The notes under the pieces were generated by a model. That model was not told the DNA's origin. It made no database searches and saw only the letters and a list, made by a program, of their open reading frames with translations. From the IMG/VR virus record IMGVR_UViG_3300045454_000145, positions 1 through 36,247 of that record: a stretch of DNA of 36,247 bases, one strand, 5' to 3'. A program made the position numbers and the translations under genes. The stretch comes from a virus. Shown here in pieces: positions 3,020 through 15,727 of the stretch (position 1 is its first letter; every line of letters begins with the position of its first letter).

Positions 3020-3759
3020 TGGTCGCGACCATGCGCGTTACGCCGGCAATCGTTCCTCTCAGGTGGATCGGCCGCGGCGTCGACGTCCGCGTCTGCATCA
3101 CCGACGAGATCCTCGTCTACGGGTTCGACGCCCTCGCCGCCCTAGGCATCTTCACCGACACCATCAACCGACACCGCTCCTACCCTCTGGCAGCCGTCGG
3201 CCTTCTGCCAGCCGGGGTGAAGTTCCGCGACGACGTCGTCGACGAGTCTCGCTCCTCGACGCCGCTGTACACGATCGATCGGCTTGAGCAGATCGCGCAG
3301 CGCAACCACACCGACCCCAACCTCGTCGACGAGCTCTTCGCCTGGCTTCGCTCCGCCGTCGACGCTCTCCTCAACCCGCCTTCCGCTCAGCCCTCCACCG
3401 AGGTCGCCGAGGATCCCGGCGCGGAGCCTGCGACCTACTCCCTCCGCCGAGCAGCCGTCATCCTCTCCCGCGACCCCGCCCTCACCTACGGCCAGCAGAC
3501 CCTCCTCGACGCCATCTCTGCTCTCGGATGGACGGCCCGTGAGCTCGGCATCTGGGTGCCGGCGCCGAAGCCGCTGGACGAGGGGTGGCTCGTGCGGCAC
3601 CGCATCCGGGTCGGCTACGAACGCCGCGAGGAGCGCGTCCTGTGCCCGCAGATCCGCATCACCCAGGCCGGACTGCAGGAGCTGCACACGCGCCTCGGGG
3701 GAGTGTCCACCCTCGCGATCGACGAGCAGCCCGCTCCGACCCTGCTGGACCCCGCATGA
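3019..3759 (+). CDS. Phage antirepressor, KilA-C type
   Basis: This 246-residue protein has a C-terminal half (about residues 140-235) that matches the KilA-C antirepressor DNA-binding domain. The pattern runs through a helical segment with YGQQTLLDAISALGW and then GWLVRHRIRVGY to QIRITQAGLQELHTRL. Residues 10-95 resemble a short BRO-N-like domain (VDVRVCITDE, DALAALGI), less certainly. Such proteins relieve repression or switch on lytic genes. Early position beside small regulators fits. The start ATG overlaps the previous stop; a second ATG lies four codons in. Confidence 0.75.
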   Translation: MVATMRVTPAIVPLRWIGRGVDVRVCITDEILVYGFDALAALGIFTDTINRHRSYPLAAVGLLPAGVKFRDDVVDESRSSTPLYTIDRLEQIAQRNHTDPNLVDELFAWLRSAVDALLNPPSAQPSTEVAEDPGAEPATYSLRRAAVILSRDPALTYGQQTLLDAISALGWTARELGIWVPAPKPLDEGWLVRHRIRVGYERREERVLCPQIRITQAGLQELHTRLGGVSTLAIDEQPAPTLLDPA

Positions 3760-12081: not shown

Positions 12082-12446
12082 CGTCGGTGGAGCGGCTGCA
12101 GGCCGCCATCGAGAAACTCGAGGCCGCCCAGGGGGAGACGTGGTACTTCACCACTCCGGGCGACGAGGGACTGCTCAGCCGACAGGGCTGGATTGACGCC
12201 GTCAACCCGGGCGGCGGACGCCAGGTGCTCGGGTTGATCGGTCCGGGCGACGCGGACCGCATCCTGATGCTGCACCGCACGATCGACGCGCAGATTGCGG
12301 TTCTGATGGCAGGGCTGGATCGAGTAGAGCGCTGGCTTTCACCCGACTCGGAGTTCGGCTTCGACCCCGATCTCGACGGCGACGGCTCAGCCGCAGCCCC
12401 AGAAGCGCTCGCTCTGGCCGACGCGATCCTCGGGAGCGACTCGTGA
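12078..12446 (+). CDS. Hypothetical protein
   Basis: This 122-residue protein starts at GTG 12078 (GTGA overlap). It opens with a coiled helix (SVERLQAAIEKLEAAQ), then WYFTTPGDEG, a helical middle (DADRILMLHRTIDAQIAVLM) and an acidic tail. No family was recognised. Coupled with the lipoprotein gene downstream by a 4-nt overlap. Confidence 0.6.
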   Translation: MTSVERLQAAIEKLEAAQGETWYFTTPGDEGLLSRQGWIDAVNPGGGRQVLGLIGPGDADRILMLHRTIDAQIAVLMAGLDRVERWLSPDSEFGFDPDLDGDGSAAAPEALALADAILGSDS

Positions 12447-12649
12447 GGGCCGCGACCGTGGCGGCGCTCGCCGTGGTGATCCTGCTCCTCGCCGGCTGTG
12501 GCGGCAACCGGGCCATGACGCCGGAGGAGATCGCCGAGATCGCCGCCGCCCGCGACGCGTGCAATGCGGCCGACGGCACGTTCCTGCAGTGGTCGACGGA
12601 GTTCGGCAATCGGTGGCGCTGCGACTTCGACCAACGCGAGGACGACTGA
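12443..12649 (+). CDS. Small phage lipoprotein
   Basis: This 68-residue protein has a signal peptide: MRAATVAALAVVILLLAGC with lipobox LAGC and Cys19 as the predicted lipid-attached residue. The mature part is about 50 residues, has two more cysteines (DACNAADG and WRCDF, a possible disulfide) and an acidic end. It would sit outside the cytoplasmic membrane. Phage lipoproteins are known to block superinfection or DNA entry. That role is possible here but unproven. GTG start overlaps the previous stop. Confidence 0.75.
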   Translation: MRAATVAALAVVILLLAGCGGNRAMTPEEIAEIAAARDACNAADGTFLQWSTEFGNRWRCDFDQREDD

Positions 12650-13092
12650 TGGCCGACTACGCCGAGAACGTCCCGACCACGACCGACGAGCTGCGCAACT
12701 GGTTCGCCAGCTTCAAGCACGACGACGAGGTCGCTCAGTGGTGCGAAGGCCTCTCAACCACTATCGCCCGCTACCACCACGACCGCGCCATGCACGACCG
12801 CGACGGCTTCCTCGCACACCTCGCCTACGACCCCGAATGCGTCGCCCTCGGCCACACGCGCAGCGTCGACGAAGAAACCGGCGAACTCGAAGACCCCGAC
12901 GACGACGAACTCTCACGCGACGGCACACACGTCCCCTCCTGGGACGGCGAATACCTGTGCCGCGACACCCGCTACGCCGACGCCTGCACCGAATGCGAAA
13001 GCGAACACTGCGAGTACCTGCAACCCCTCCCGAACCTCTGGGCACTCGTCACAGCACCGTCGCTCGCCGAGGAGGGGACCGCTCGTGGCTGA
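12649..13092 (+). CDS. Acidic Cys-rich hypothetical protein
   Basis: This 147-residue acidic protein starts at ATG 12649 (TGATG overlap). The N-terminal half is helical and contains WCEGLS and HHDRAMHDRDGF. The C-terminal half has Asp/Glu-rich linkers and a Cys cluster around CTECESEHCEYLQ that may bind zinc. No family was recognised. Confidence 0.6.
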   Translation: MADYAENVPTTTDELRNWFASFKHDDEVAQWCEGLSTTIARYHHDRAMHDRDGFLAHLAYDPECVALGHTRSVDEETGELEDPDDDELSRDGTHVPSWDGEYLCRDTRYADACTECESEHCEYLQPLPNLWALVTAPSLAEEGTARG

Positions 13093-13414
13093 GCAGCAAT
13101 ACTGCAGCCGGCACGCGGCCGAGCGCGGCGTGGCCAACGCGACCGGCCGGTGGGTCGACGTCGCCGGTCACGAGCACGAGCTCGAGCCGCCTCGCGCCAT
13201 GGTGTGGCTCAGCGATTCCGAGAACGGCCTCTGGCGTGCATGCCTGCTCATCTGGACCGGCAACACCTGGAAGGCCTCACGCGAGTTCCCCACCTGGGCC
13301 GAAGCGATGAACCACGCGCTCACCATCGTCGCCGCCGAGCGCGCACAGAGAACCACGGCGCTCGCCGTGGGTTGCCGTAGTGCACAAGATTCAGAGAGAG
13401 GACAGCAGCGATGA
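13085..13414 (+). CDS. Accessory hypothetical protein with DSE tail
   Basis: This 109-residue protein overlaps the previous gene by 8 nt (GTG start). It has a beta-rich core with WVDVAGHEHELEPPRAMVWL and WRACLLIWTGNTWKASREF. It ends AQDSERGQQR, the first of a series of proteins here that end with an Asp-Ser motif because a start-linked DNA element lies under the C-terminus. Function unknown. Confidence 0.6.
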   Translation: MAEQQYCSRHAAERGVANATGRWVDVAGHEHELEPPRAMVWLSDSENGLWRACLLIWTGNTWKASREFPTWAEAMNHALTIVAAERAQRTTALAVGCRSAQDSERGQQR

Positions 13415-13599
13415 ACGACGAGCCGAGCACGATGTGGGTCACCTTCCCAGTCGTGGGCGACGACGAGGAGCTGCGGGCGATGCAGATCGTGACGCACGCG
13501 GTTGAGGGCCTAGACGACGAGCGCGCTCGGGCGCGCGTGCTGCGCTGGGCGCTCGACCGCTATTCACACGATTCCGAGCCGCGAGTGCCGGATGCCTGA
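13411..13599 (+). CDS. Small accessory protein
   Basis: This 62-residue acidic protein starts at ATG 13411 behind a GATTC element and GAGAGAGG. It contains MWVTFPVVGDDEELRAMQIV and a helical remainder, and ends YSHDSEPRVPDA with the shared Asp-Ser motif. It overlaps the methyltransferase start by 8 nt. No family was recognised. Confidence 0.55.
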   Translation: MNDEPSTMWVTFPVVGDDEELRAMQIVTHAVEGLDDERARARVLRWALDRYSHDSEPRVPDA

Positions 13600-14353
13600 G
13601 CTGATCTATGCCGACGAGCTAGTGCAGCTCTACCTCGGCGACTACCGAGACGCTGACCTTTCGGAGCTGGATGCCACGGCGATCGTGACCGACCCGCCCT
13701 ACGGGGAGACGAGCCTGGAGTGGGACCGCTGGCCGACTGGTTGGCTTGACGATGCCTGTTCGATCGCACCCGCGCTCTGGTGCTTCGGGTCGATGCGGAT
13801 GTTCCTCGAGCATGGCAACGAGTTCACGCAGGCGGGCTATCGATTCGCGCAAGACATCGTCTGGGAGAAGCACAACGGCTCAGGGCTTGCCGCCGACCGT
13901 TTTCGCCGCGTGCACGAGATCGCGACGCACTGGTATCACGGCGAGTGGGCTGATGTGAAGCACAAGACGCTGACCACGGCGGACGCGAGTCCGCGGATCG
14001 TTCGTCGACGAGAGTCAAAGGGCGAGCACCAGGGCTCACGGGGCGTGAGCAGCTACGTCTCGGAGGACGGCGGGCCCCGGCTCATGCGCTCGGTGATCCC
14101 GGTGCGCTCCGAGCACGGTCGCGCGGTGCATCCGACACAGAAGCCTGTGGGCATCGTCGCGCCGCTCATCGAGTACAGCACCGAGCGCGGCGATCTCGTC
14201 CTCGATCTGTTCGGCGGCTCAGGCACCACGGCGTTGGCCGCGCGAGCGCTCGGTCGCCGATGCGTGATCTTCGAGGCTCGCGAGGACTACGCGACCTCCG
14301 CAGTGAAGCGACTCTCACAACAGACGTTCGACCTGGAAGGACTCAGCGCATGA
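13592..14353 (+). CDS. Orphan DNA methyltransferase (DPPY type)
   Basis: This 253-residue SAM-dependent DNA methyltransferase has DPPYGE (34-39, catalytic motif IV), HPTQKP (180-185) and DLFGGSGTT (205-213, SAM-binding motif I). Motif IV precedes motif I, the class beta order. DPPY is usual for N6-adenine enzymes; N4-cytosine cannot be excluded. Length is complete for a small type II-like enzyme. No cognate restriction enzyme is beside it, so it probably protects phage DNA against host restriction or alters expression. Codon use is less GC-biased than the early operon, which suggests acquisition. Confidence 0.85.
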   Translation: MPELIYADELVQLYLGDYRDADLSELDATAIVTDPPYGETSLEWDRWPTGWLDDACSIAPALWCFGSMRMFLEHGNEFTQAGYRFAQDIVWEKHNGSGLAADRFRRVHEIATHWYHGEWADVKHKTLTTADASPRIVRRRESKGEHQGSRGVSSYVSEDGGPRLMRSVIPVRSEHGRAVHPTQKPVGIVAPLIEYSTERGDLVLDLFGGSGTTALAARALGRRCVIFEAREDYATSAVKRLSQQTFDLEGLSA

Positions 14354-14390
14354 ACCCAAGATCGCCCGATCTAGGGACAGGAGAGCAGTG

Positions 14391-14558
14391 ATGCGCGCGG
14401 AACTTGCAGCCGATCAGTTGGAGACCTTAGGCCGACTCTTGCGGGCAGACGGCTGGGGCATTCACTACCTCAAGGCGGTTCAGATGGGCGAAAAAGCGCT
14501 GCGAGAAATGGTCGCCGCTTCGCCCGATTCCGGCAGGGAGGCAGACCGTGCGCTGTGA
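14391..14558 (+). CDS. Small accessory protein, 55 residues
   Basis: The ATG at 14391 has AGGAG at 14379-14383. The protein is helical (MRAELAADQLETLGRLLR, then HYLKAVQMGEKALREM) and ends SPDSGREADRAL, carrying the shared Asp-Ser tail. Its 3' end contains one of two identical 29-bp junction copies and overlaps the next GTG start. No family was recognised. Confidence 0.55.
   Translation: MRAELAADQLETLGRLLRADGWGIHYLKAVQMGEKALREMVAASPDSGREADRAL
14522..14550 (+). repeat. 29-bp junction repeat, copy A
   Basis: Identical over 29 bp to 14948-14976. It encodes PDSGREADR of the upstream gene, carries AGGGAGG as Shine-Dalgarno and ends with the GTG start of the next gene. Recombination between the two copies would remove two genes cleanly. 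Confidence 0.9.
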
Positions 14559-14694
14559 GGCTTGCGGCCGATTTACGCGAGGGCCATTGACTGACATGGG
14601 CGGCGATACAGGCGACGGCGGACCTAGCCCCGCGTGGTGGTGGGGACCGTGCTGCGCCCCCAGTTCAAACGATTCCGAGAGGAGCACCGACTGA
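14548..14694 (+). CDS. Cys-containing microprotein, 48 residues
   Basis: This protein starts at GTG 14548 within the junction repeat. It reads MRCEACGRFTRGPL and later WWWGPCCAPSSNDSERSTD. The CxxC and CC pairs could bind zinc, and the end again has Asp-Ser. It overlaps the next start by one base (TGATG). Coding status rests on the strong start element and couplings. Confidence 0.5.
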   Translation: MRCEACGRFTRGPLTDMGGDTGDGGPSPAWWWGPCCAPSSNDSERSTD

Positions 14695-14981
14695 TGACTC
14701 AGCTGCTGTTCGATCTGCCTGGCATAGATCAGGGGCGTCGAGTTGAACGGCTCGAGTACGCCGTGCGCGCGCTTAGTAACGGAGGCGGAATGCAGAAAGG
14801 CGATGTCCAGCTTCTTGGTGAGCACACCGCCCGGTGGCTGACCAGTGCCGCCACCCGCGAGGAGCTGCCCTACTACGGATACCCGCAAGACCTTGAGGTC
14901 GTGCAACGTCGAATCGTCACTTACACCGGCAACTGGGAACCAAGTTGGCCCGATTCCGGCAGGGAGGCAGACCGTGGCTGA
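14694..14981 (+). CDS. Small accessory protein
   Basis: This 95-residue protein starts at ATG 14694 behind GATTCCGAGAGGAG. It begins MTQLLFDLPGIDQGRRVERL, is mainly helical, has a YYGYPQDLEVVQRRIVTYTG segment and ends WPDSGREADRG with the shared tail. Overlaps the next gene by 8 nt. Function unknown. Confidence 0.55.
   Translation: MTQLLFDLPGIDQGRRVERLEYAVRALSNGGGMQKGDVQLLGEHTARWLTSAATREELPYYGYPQDLEVVQRRIVTYTGNWEPSWPDSGREADRG
14948..14976 (+). repeat. 29-bp junction repeat, copy B
   Basis: Identical to 14522-14550 and used in the same way: C-terminal codons of one gene, Shine-Dalgarno and GTG start of the next. Copies at 15184-15212 and 15515-15544 are close variants; the latter differs from this one by a single substitution and one inserted A. 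Confidence 0.9.
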
Positions 14982-15213
14982 GCGACTCACGTTCGATGAC
15001 GACGGCACTCTCGACGAGCTCGTAGCGTTCGACGCTCACGTGCATCTGGAGCACTTGGGCGACGGCGAGTACATGCTGATCGTTCAGGGTGATGAACTGT
15101 ACGTGAACCTGAGCATGCTCGTGAAGCGGTCTTGGAGAGGCGTTCCGAAGATCGTGGCTGGCGAGGTGTTCGGACTCAACACTCCTGATTCCGGAAGGGA
15201 GACAGAGCGATGA
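14974..15213 (+). CDS. Small accessory protein, 79 residues
   Basis: This protein starts at GTG 14974 in junction copy B. It reads MAERLTFDDDGTLDELVAFD, then alternating beta segments (HVHLEHLGDGEYMLIVQGDE, LYVNLSMLVKRSW), suggesting a compact beta domain. It ends TPDSGRETER. Overlaps the next ATG by 4 nt. No family was recognised. Confidence 0.6.
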   Translation: MAERLTFDDDGTLDELVAFDAHVHLEHLGDGEYMLIVQGDELYVNLSMLVKRSWRGVPKIVAGEVFGLNTPDSGRETER

Positions 15214-15545
15214 GCCCTGTGCACAACCACGGCCCCGCCGAGGGTCGTGGGCTGGACTGTGGCGAGGCGATGGTGAACGGCAAGCTGCGCGGGCACTGCT
15301 TGGACACCGATGAACATCAGCAACGCGGGCGGCTCAACCCCTACGAATGGCGTTCTGCCGAGTGGCCCGATCTTGTCGGCGTCTCGGTGACCGCGATGCG
15401 TCGCCCTGGCGCTGAGGTTCGAGTGTCGAACGGCATCACGTTCATGGGCATCCTGCTGACAGGCGAACAGGCTGCCGAAATGGGCGCGGTGCTGATCGAG
15501 TTCTCCCGCACTTCGCCCGATTCCCGCAGGGAGGCAGACCAGTGA
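15210..15545 (+). CDS. Accessory hypothetical protein
   Basis: This 111-residue protein starts at ATG 15210 behind GATTCCGGAAGGGAG. Early His and Cys residues (HNHGPAEGRGLDC, then HC) may form a metal site. The C-terminal half is beta-rich (EVRVSNGITFMGILLTGEQA) and ends SPDSRREADQ. Function unknown. Confidence 0.55.
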   Translation: MSPVHNHGPAEGRGLDCGEAMVNGKLRGHCLDTDEHQQRGRLNPYEWRSAEWPDLVGVSVTAMRRPGAEVRVSNGITFMGILLTGEQAAEMGAVLIEFSRTSPDSRREADQ

Positions 15546-15727
15546 GCACGACAGGCATCATTATCTGCGAGCCGCCCACGCATTGCGCTGATCCGCACGT
15601 CTTGCGCTGGTATTGCTCGCGAGGGCATGACGGCGCTGCGCCGGGCATCTGCCCTCTGACTCGATGCGATCGGCGCGGAGTGAACCGCGTGCCTACTTCT
15701 CCAGATTCCGGCACAACTGCCGGCTAG
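15542..15727 (+). CDS. Cys-rich small protein, last of the array
   Basis: This 61-residue protein starts at GTG 15542. Cysteines occur in CEPPTHC, YCSRGHD and CPLTRC, with histidines between, so zinc binding is plausible. It ends SPDSGTTAG. Its TAG stop shares the palindrome CTAG (15724-15727) with the stop of the convergent minus-strand gene. Confidence 0.55.
   Translation: MSTTGIIICEPPTHCADPHVLRWYCSRGHDGAAPGICPLTRCDRRGVNRVPTSPDSGTTAG
15708..15723. terminator. Hairpin between convergent genes
   Basis: CCGGCA-CAAC-TGCCGG is a perfect 6-bp stem directly before the shared stop codons of two convergent genes. It grows out of the ninth GATTCCGG element. There is no T-run, so it is only a possible bidirectional terminator or barrier. 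Confidence 0.4.

What the first reader, a model, noticed from the sequence alone, without database searches (positions are those of the whole stretch)
13385..15727. Start-linked GATTC element before eight consecutive genes
GATTC (once GATCT) lies 22-23 nt before eight successive start codons, beyond the reach of normal ribosome-binding needs. The full element is strongly kept in four copies. It may be a start-associated signal, a shared protein or RNA target, or a joining sequence used to assemble a gene cassette array. I know of no described equivalent with this motif.
Basis: seen in the sequence. Interest (0 to 1): 0.8.

Follow-up and report, generated by a model that had tools for sequence, protein, structure and literature searches.

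The report
Translated joining sequence between phage genes
A run of small accessory genes in an actinobacterial phage is joined by copies of one short sequence that is at once the end of one gene and the ribosome landing site of the next, which may let the phage swap genes in and out while keeping them translated.

Summary
The motif is real: GATTC (once GATCT) lies 22-23 nt before eight successive starts, far beyond chance. It is not only start-linked. Every copy also lies inside the preceding open reading frame, always in the same frame, so unrelated proteins share a C-terminal tail (S/T)(P/H)DS(G/E). A ninth copy (15704) ends the last gene with no start after it. Two mosaic relatives carry the same element at junctions of mostly different genes; a third, more distant phage carries a diverged form. 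The methylase block shared by window and L011 begins at one element and ends inside the next. Where the preceding gene lacks the tail, a 12-17-codon mini-ORF supplies it, overlapping that gene's stop and reaching the next start: six cases in five phages, one with an unrelated tail. Most likely this is a translated joining element (tail, stop, Shine-Dalgarno sequence and start overlap in one piece) that couples each gene to the previous one by termination-reinitiation. It resembles bicistronic-design leaders and MIRU mini-ORFs, and is a variant of start-associated sequences, which in phage TM4 are mostly intergenic. No expression data exist. A regulator-binding site or functional tail peptide remains possible but less likely.

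The parts
13388..13410 (+). element copy 1 (GATTCAGAGAGAGGACAGCAGCG), encodes ..AQDSERGQQR* of the upstream gene
13570..13591 (+). element copy 2, encodes ..SHDSEPRVPDA*; upstream edge of the methylase block shared with L011
14350..14391 (+). 13-codon relay mini-ORF MNPRSPDLGTGEQ*, starts on the methylase stop (ATGA) and ends on the next start; contains copy 3
14368..14390 (+). element copy 3 (GATCT variant; 5' half like class 1, 3' half like class 2)
14526..14547 (+). element copy 4 (class 1, GATTCCGGCAGGGAGGCAGACC), tail PDSGREADRAL*
14671..14693 (+). element copy 5, tail NDSERSTD*
14952..14973 (+). element copy 6 (class 1), tail PDSGREADRG*
15187..15209 (+). element copy 7, tail PDSGRETER*
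15519..15541 (+). element copy 8, tail PDSRREADQ*
15704..15727 (+). element copy 9: 5' half only, tail PDSGTTAG*, no start downstream (convergent minus-strand ORF ends at 15724)
13085..13414 (+). small gene 1 of the array (109 aa, no family hit)
13411..13599 (+). small gene 2 (62 aa, no family hit)
13592..14353 (+). N6_N4 DNA methyltransferase (PF01555), no tail of its own
14391..14558 (+). small gene 4 (no family hit); GTG at 14388 is an alternative start
14548..14694 (+). small gene 5 (48 aa, no family hit)
14694..14981 (+). small gene 6 (95 aa, no family hit)
14974..15213 (+). small gene 7 (79 aa, no family hit)
15210..15545 (+). small gene 8 (111 aa; weak N-terminal match to phrog_1546 and to mycobacteriophage hypothetical proteins)
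15542..15727 (+). small gene 9, last of the array (61 aa)
13563..14370 (+). block shared with L011 (85.5% nt); both edges fall in elements. The block shared with L010 is 13591-14353, i.e. start codon to stop codon

Best explanation
The element is a translated joining (relay) sequence of a phage accessory-gene array. In about 35 nt it supplies the last ~9 codons and stop of whatever frame enters it, a Shine-Dalgarno sequence (GGAGG or AGGAG), and a stop-start overlap with the next gene. A ribosome that finishes one gene therefore ends on or beside the next start and re-initiates there, so each gene in the array is translated in step with the one before, whatever genes happen to be neighbours. 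Genes are gained and replaced as cassettes with boundaries at these elements. A newcomer either becomes fused in frame to the tail, losing its own stop, or keeps its stop and is followed by a short mini-ORF made of the tail. Shown: sequence, positions, frame, mini-ORFs, shared elements between mosaic relatives, cassette edges at elements. Inferred: that coupling really occurs, that it is the reason the element is kept, and that homologous recombination at the element moves the genes.
For: (1) All 19 copies found by DNA similarity in the array regions of four phages, and 21 in all, are in frame with the upstream ORF, while start distance varies. (2) Six mini-ORFs of 12-17 codons in five phages begin on the stop of a full gene and end on or beside the next start, and consist almost only of the tail. 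(3) Fused and stand-alone forms are interchangeable: after a phrog_1467-like gene the tail is fused in L010 (..SSHDSETGEQ*) but is a separate mini-ORF in L011 (..ERTAA* then MNGYSKPHDSETGEQP*); in L013 an unrelated tail NHENGRSER* is fused at 3519 and stand-alone at 13992. (4) Homologues of tailed proteins lack the tail: Mom-like protein ..LWETVPSSHDFETKVPDA* in L011 against ..LWEVLAS* in L052; most phage homologues align only to about residue 147-150 of 162. (5) Cassette edges at elements: window-L011 block 13563-14370, the 3' edge inside the element. (6) Junction sharing as strong as in TM4, the known start-associated phage, and absent or marginal in five other actinophages. (7) Tail residues changed freely between orthologous junctions (1 synonymous, 7 non-synonymous against 75 and 34 in the methylase, Fisher p = 0.003). 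Coupling by stop-start overlap with an upstream SD is established (PMC6728339).
Against: No expression or ribosome data. Stop-start overlaps are ordinary in phages, and most have no shared 35-nt element, so coupling alone does not require the GATTC half. GAT is used 21 of 21 times although GAC is four times commoner, and third codon positions are the most variable in the six informative codons around it; both hint at some constraint on the 5' half that coupling does not explain. One gained or lost gene with an otherwise unchanged flank (a clean empty site) was not found.
Confidence: 0.6

Rival explanations
1. A start-associated sequence in the strict sense: a DNA or RNA target of a phage or host factor that switches the whole set of small genes on or off together, as proposed for SAS/ESAS of cluster K and EF phages.
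For: Fixed place 22-23 nt before most starts, one orientation, restricted to one region of non-structural genes, GAT invariant in 21 copies despite codon bias. SAS-like motifs are common in actinophages (PMC3203893, PMC7302621).
Against: No inverted repeat within it, no fold (z between -0.9 and 1.1), no Rfam family. A copy without a start (15704). Distance to start varies but frame does not; a binding site has no reason to respect the upstream frame. TM4 SAS are intergenic in 9 of 10 cases.
Confidence: 0.17
2. The conserved thing is the tail peptide: (S/T)(P/H)DS(G/E).. is a C-terminal tag that acts on the proteins, for instance for partner binding or turnover.
For: In frame 21 of 21; third codon positions most variable in 6 of 6 informative codons; a tail kept on the last gene where no start follows (15704).
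Against: The tail also occurs as mini-ORFs with no protein attached, in five phages. Between orthologous junctions (13570 against L011 7979) it changes mostly non-synonymously. The methylase at the centre of the array lacks it, and homologues of tailed proteins elsewhere lack it.
Confidence: 0.12
3. The copies are only the footprint of recent duplication of junctions and mosaic recombination, with no function beyond an ordinary ribosome-binding site.
For: Copies within one phage often resemble each other closely; hybrid copy at 14368; 5' half kept on the last gene with no use there.
Against: The gene bodies are not duplicates of each other, so only the ~35-nt junction is shared. Phages with different terminase modules share it, and mini-ORFs recur, also with a different tail sequence.
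Confidence: 0.1

Closest known systems
Start Associated Sequences (SAS/ESAS), cluster K mycobacteriophages and cluster EF Microbacterium phages; similar motif 21-30 bp before starts in cluster EC
   Same: Short asymmetric sequence, one orientation, before starts of small non-structural genes of different families, overlapping the SD; function not known (PMC3203893, PMC7302621).
   Different: TM4 SAS are intergenic in 9 of 10 cases; here every copy is inside the upstream ORF in one frame, and mini-ORFs carry it. Sequence unrelated: one 2-mismatch SAS match in the window, as many as chance gives.
MIRU (mycobacterial interspersed repetitive units)
   Same: A short repeat holding a small ORF, tied to its neighbour by a 4-nt stop-start overlap so that translation is passed on (review PMC12548453).
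   Different: MIRUs lie in bacterial chromosomes and insert at start codons as units with their own ORF; here the element is mostly fused to the upstream gene and repeated through a phage array. MIRU sequences were not compared here.
Bicistronic design (BCD) leaders of biotechnology
   Same: Short leader ORF with the second SD inside it and its stop overlapping the start of the next gene (PMC6302717); the mini-ORFs have this layout.
   Different: BCD is engineered and has a first SD of its own; here the mini-ORF start overlaps the stop of a natural gene.
Boundary (linker) sequences of lambdoid phages (Susskind and Botstein 1978; Clark 2001, as cited in PMC3029335)
   Same: Short conserved sequences at gene edges proposed as places for homologous recombination between mosaic modules.
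   Different: Here the boundary is repeated many times in one array, is translated and includes the SD and start. Recombination at it is inferred from block edges only.
Cluster O 17-bp repeats (PMC4351075)
   Same: Repeats with evidence of gene gain or loss by recombination between copies.
   Different: Those are palindromic and not tied to starts or to a reading frame.

Membership tests
SAS (cluster K / EF) | conserved consensus GGGATAGGAGCCC (cluster K) | tested here: not met
   GGGATAGGAGCCC with up to 2 mismatches: one match in the window, at chance level. The EF consensus was not searched.
SAS (cluster K / EF) | located at the RBS, a few nt before starts of several gene families, one orientation | tested here: met
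   SD half of the element before eight starts, all + strand
SAS (cluster K / EF) | mostly in short intergenic gaps (9 of 10 in TM4) | tested here: not met
   21 of 21 inside the upstream ORF, same frame
ESAS | imperfect 17-bp inverted repeats with spacer next to the SAS | tested here: not met
   no inverted repeat at the junctions; folds no better than shuffles
MIRU | small ORF joined to neighbours by stop-start overlaps | tested here: met
   mini-ORFs at window 14350, L011 6866 and 8759, G009, L013, L218
MIRU | sequence similarity to the MIRU family | not tested
   no MIRU sequence was fetched
MIRU | mobile as a unit, with empty sites | tested here: inconclusive
   L010 methylase has no element and its stop overlaps another gene directly, but the flanks differ
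BCD-like leader | SD for the next gene inside a short translated leader, stop overlapping the next start | tested here: met
   sequence layout
BCD-like leader | translation of the next gene depends on translation of the leader | not testable with these tools
   needs reporters or ribosome profiling
linker/boundary sequence | edges of homology between mosaic genomes fall in the shared short sequence | tested here: met
   window-L011 block 13563-14370; a single locus

The most novel reading that the evidence does not exclude
Actinobacterial phages use phage-specific translated joining elements as a general device for accessory genes: each element carries the end of one ORF, the SD and the start overlap, and exists in two interchangeable forms (fused tail or stand-alone relay mini-ORF), so that a gene acquired at random is at once translated in step with the operon. 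Different phages have settled on different tail sequences (DSGREAD/DSETGE type, NHENGRSER type, PDHTNRS type).
Probability: 0.4. Interest if true: 0.75.

Novelty: new variant of a known kind. Interest (0 to 1): 0.55.

Why it matters
How phage accessory genes keep being expressed when they are swapped so freely is an open question, and so is the function of start-associated sequences. This array gives a concrete, testable link between the two: one short sequence that marks cassette edges and passes ribosomes on. The six mini-ORFs, too short for usual gene callers, look like natural counterparts of bicistronic-design leaders. The array carries a DNA methylase here and a Mom-like modification protein in L011, so it may house counter-defence genes.

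Tried and rejected
RNA hairpin or riboregulator: six junctions fold no better than shuffles, Rfam empty. SAS consensus: chance level. Chance or composition: rejected. Duplication of whole genes: array proteins share only the tail. Isolated phages: no copies of the element in INPHARED. Bacterial genomes: the one pattern match in 84,980 species is an unrelated Lachnospira-like contig. L006, L007 and L008 share a 22-nt pattern only by chance, and G021 has a lone match inside a gene. The broad pattern GATTCNGAGACAGGAGA mostly hits a common internal peptide DSETGE in unrelated phages, which warns that an in-frame DSETGE alone is weak evidence. Survey through the phrog_1467-like gene gave only four loci. 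L013-type element elsewhere: three other contigs, in none at a gene junction. L064 and L069 have SAS-like junction repeats in different frames, so not every such repeat is translated in one frame. Host not established: the terminase resembles many actinophages.
Full report
Observation. GATTC (GATCT at 14368) starts 22 or 23 nt before ATG/GTG at 13411, 13592, 14391, 14548, 14694, 14974, 15210 and 15542. Seven of eight starts share this 5-mer at one offset; draws of random start contexts or positions never exceeded four of eight. The long form GATTCCGGCAGGGAGGCAGACC is kept in four copies. A sequence-only model built from fourteen copies finds nine places in the whole 36,247-base record, all inside 13375-15714. 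The record is a tailed phage with terminase, portal, protease, capsid and tape-measure genes, related to actinobacterial phages.

Each copy lies inside the preceding ORF and in the same frame, so the unrelated small proteins end alike: SPDSGREADRAL, WPDSGREADRG, TPDSGRETER, SPDSRREADQ, SNDSERSTD, SHDSEPRVPDA, AQDSERGQQR. The last gene ends SPDSGTTAG with only the 5' half of the element and no start behind it; a minus-strand ORF converges there. The GATCT copy lies in a 13-codon ORF, MNPRSPDLGTGEQ, which starts on the methylase stop (ATGA) and ends on the next start.

Relatives. Two IMG/VR contigs share the methylase (90-91% protein identity) and parts of the tail/lysis region with the window: IMGVR_UViG_2845007952_000001 (L010) and IMGVR_UViG_3300045454_000129 (L011). 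They have no detectable relative of the window's terminase. Both carry the element at junctions of mostly different genes, three and six copies. A more distant phage (IMGVR_UViG_2802428807_000001) has three clear copies with tails KSHDSRTEEADRG, RPADSETGDDR and the mini-ORF MRVSPDSGDAER. Over these four phages there are 21 copies, all in frame; 19 were found by DNA similarity regardless of frame. The distance to the next start is 22 or 23 nt in most but 17, 20, 25 or 26 in some, and absent in one. So the 5' half keeps step with the upstream frame, not with the start. Two further phages have the same layout with other sequences: L218 (tails TTSDSETGDQQ, APDHENRSE, TPDHTNRSR, TSDHTNRSS..) and L013 (NHENGRSER twice, 10.5 kb apart, 25 nt identical); L195 has two related junctions.

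Cassette edges. The window-L011 match around the methylase runs from 13563 to 14370 (85.5%). Upstream it begins with the element TTCACACGATT; downstream it ends inside the next element, after which the two phages carry different 3' halves (ACAGGAGAGCAG and GGCAGGGAGACAGACC). Beyond both edges identity falls to background. The window-L010 match is the methylase from start codon to stop codon, with no element on either side. A second mosaic joint lies at 12443: the end of the upstream gene is about 95% identical to L011's phage and also close to L010's, while three unrelated genes follow.

Mini-ORFs. Six were found in five phages: window 14350; L011 6866 and 8759; IMGVR_UViG_2802428807; L013 13992; L218 6112. 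Each is 12-17 codons, begins with ATGA or GTGA on the stop of a full gene and ends with TGA at the next start. The fused and stand-alone forms replace each other: after a phrog_1467-like gene, L010 has the tail fused and L011 has it as a mini-ORF; L013 has both forms of its own tail. The mini-ORFs after the methylase in window and L011 are homologous, so the six are not six independent origins.

Nucleotide or peptide? Signals are mixed. For the peptide: one frame throughout, and the third position is the most variable in six of six informative codons around the Asp codon. For the nucleotides: Asp is always GAT, though GAC is four times commoner in long genes (56 to 228), binomial p of 1e-15 or, against array bodies, 2e-10, both ignoring shared descent. 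Against a functional peptide: mini-ORFs have no cargo; the tail is not part of the protein families, shown by Mom-like homologues; and the orthologous junction 13570 / L011 7979 differs by 1 synonymous and 7 non-synonymous changes against 75 and 34 in the methylase (p = 0.003).

Mechanism. The 3' half holds GGAGG or AGGAG at normal spacing to the start and the stop overlaps or touches the next start; such pairs are coupled by termination-reinitiation, usually helped by an SD in the upstream gene (PMC6728339). A short ORF that only delivers a ribosome to the next gene is known, and MIRUs use it when they insert (PMC12548453); bicistronic-design leaders are the engineered form (PMC6302717). The inference is that the element lets a gene be joined to the operon in one step. 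This is shown by anatomy only; no expression evidence exists.

Comparison. Among six annotated actinophages, only TM4, the type phage for start-associated sequences, shows comparable sharing in the -34 to -11 region (9 of 60 starts with at least 17 of 23 matches); the other five have 0-2. In TM4 nine of ten SAS lie between genes. So the present element is of that broad kind but differs in being translated, in one frame, with relay mini-ORFs. It does not carry the cluster K SAS consensus and has no ESAS-type inverted repeat.

Verdict. Real, non-random and more interesting than first stated: a translated joining element. New variant of a known kind. The coupling function and the recombination role are likely but untested.

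Noticed in passing
window 12396-12453, with G001 and G002: The last 40 nt of the gene ending at 12446 are about 95% identical to L011's phage and close to L010's, yet the next gene differs in all three; a second mosaic joint exactly at a stop-start overlap.
   Followed up: partly
L011 7520-8008: The array of this relative holds a Mom-like DNA modification protein (phrog_1384) next to the DNA methylase, which suggests a DNA-modification or counter-defence island.
   Followed up: partly
L013 3488-3512 and 14005-14029: 25-nt identical junction sequence 10.5 kb apart in one phage, once as the end of a gene and once as a 14-codon mini-ORF.
   Followed up: yes
L064 8819, 9611, 14742; L069 635, 12389, 12603: SAS-like repeats (CCACCGGAAGGA; CGCAGCAAGGAGC) before starts in other phages, in different frames of the upstream gene.
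   Followed up: no
L038 5577 and 5944: Two junctions with in-frame tails QPTDTTKGA and QPTDITKDAQ, differing partly at synonymous positions; possibly another translated junction family.
   Followed up: no
window 13214: An internal GATTCCGAG encoding SDSEN in frame within gene 13085-13414, like an element fossil inside a gene; may be chance.
   Followed up: no
viral contigs: The peptide DSETGE is common in unrelated phage proteins and is often encoded by GATTCNGAGACAGGAGA.
   Followed up: no
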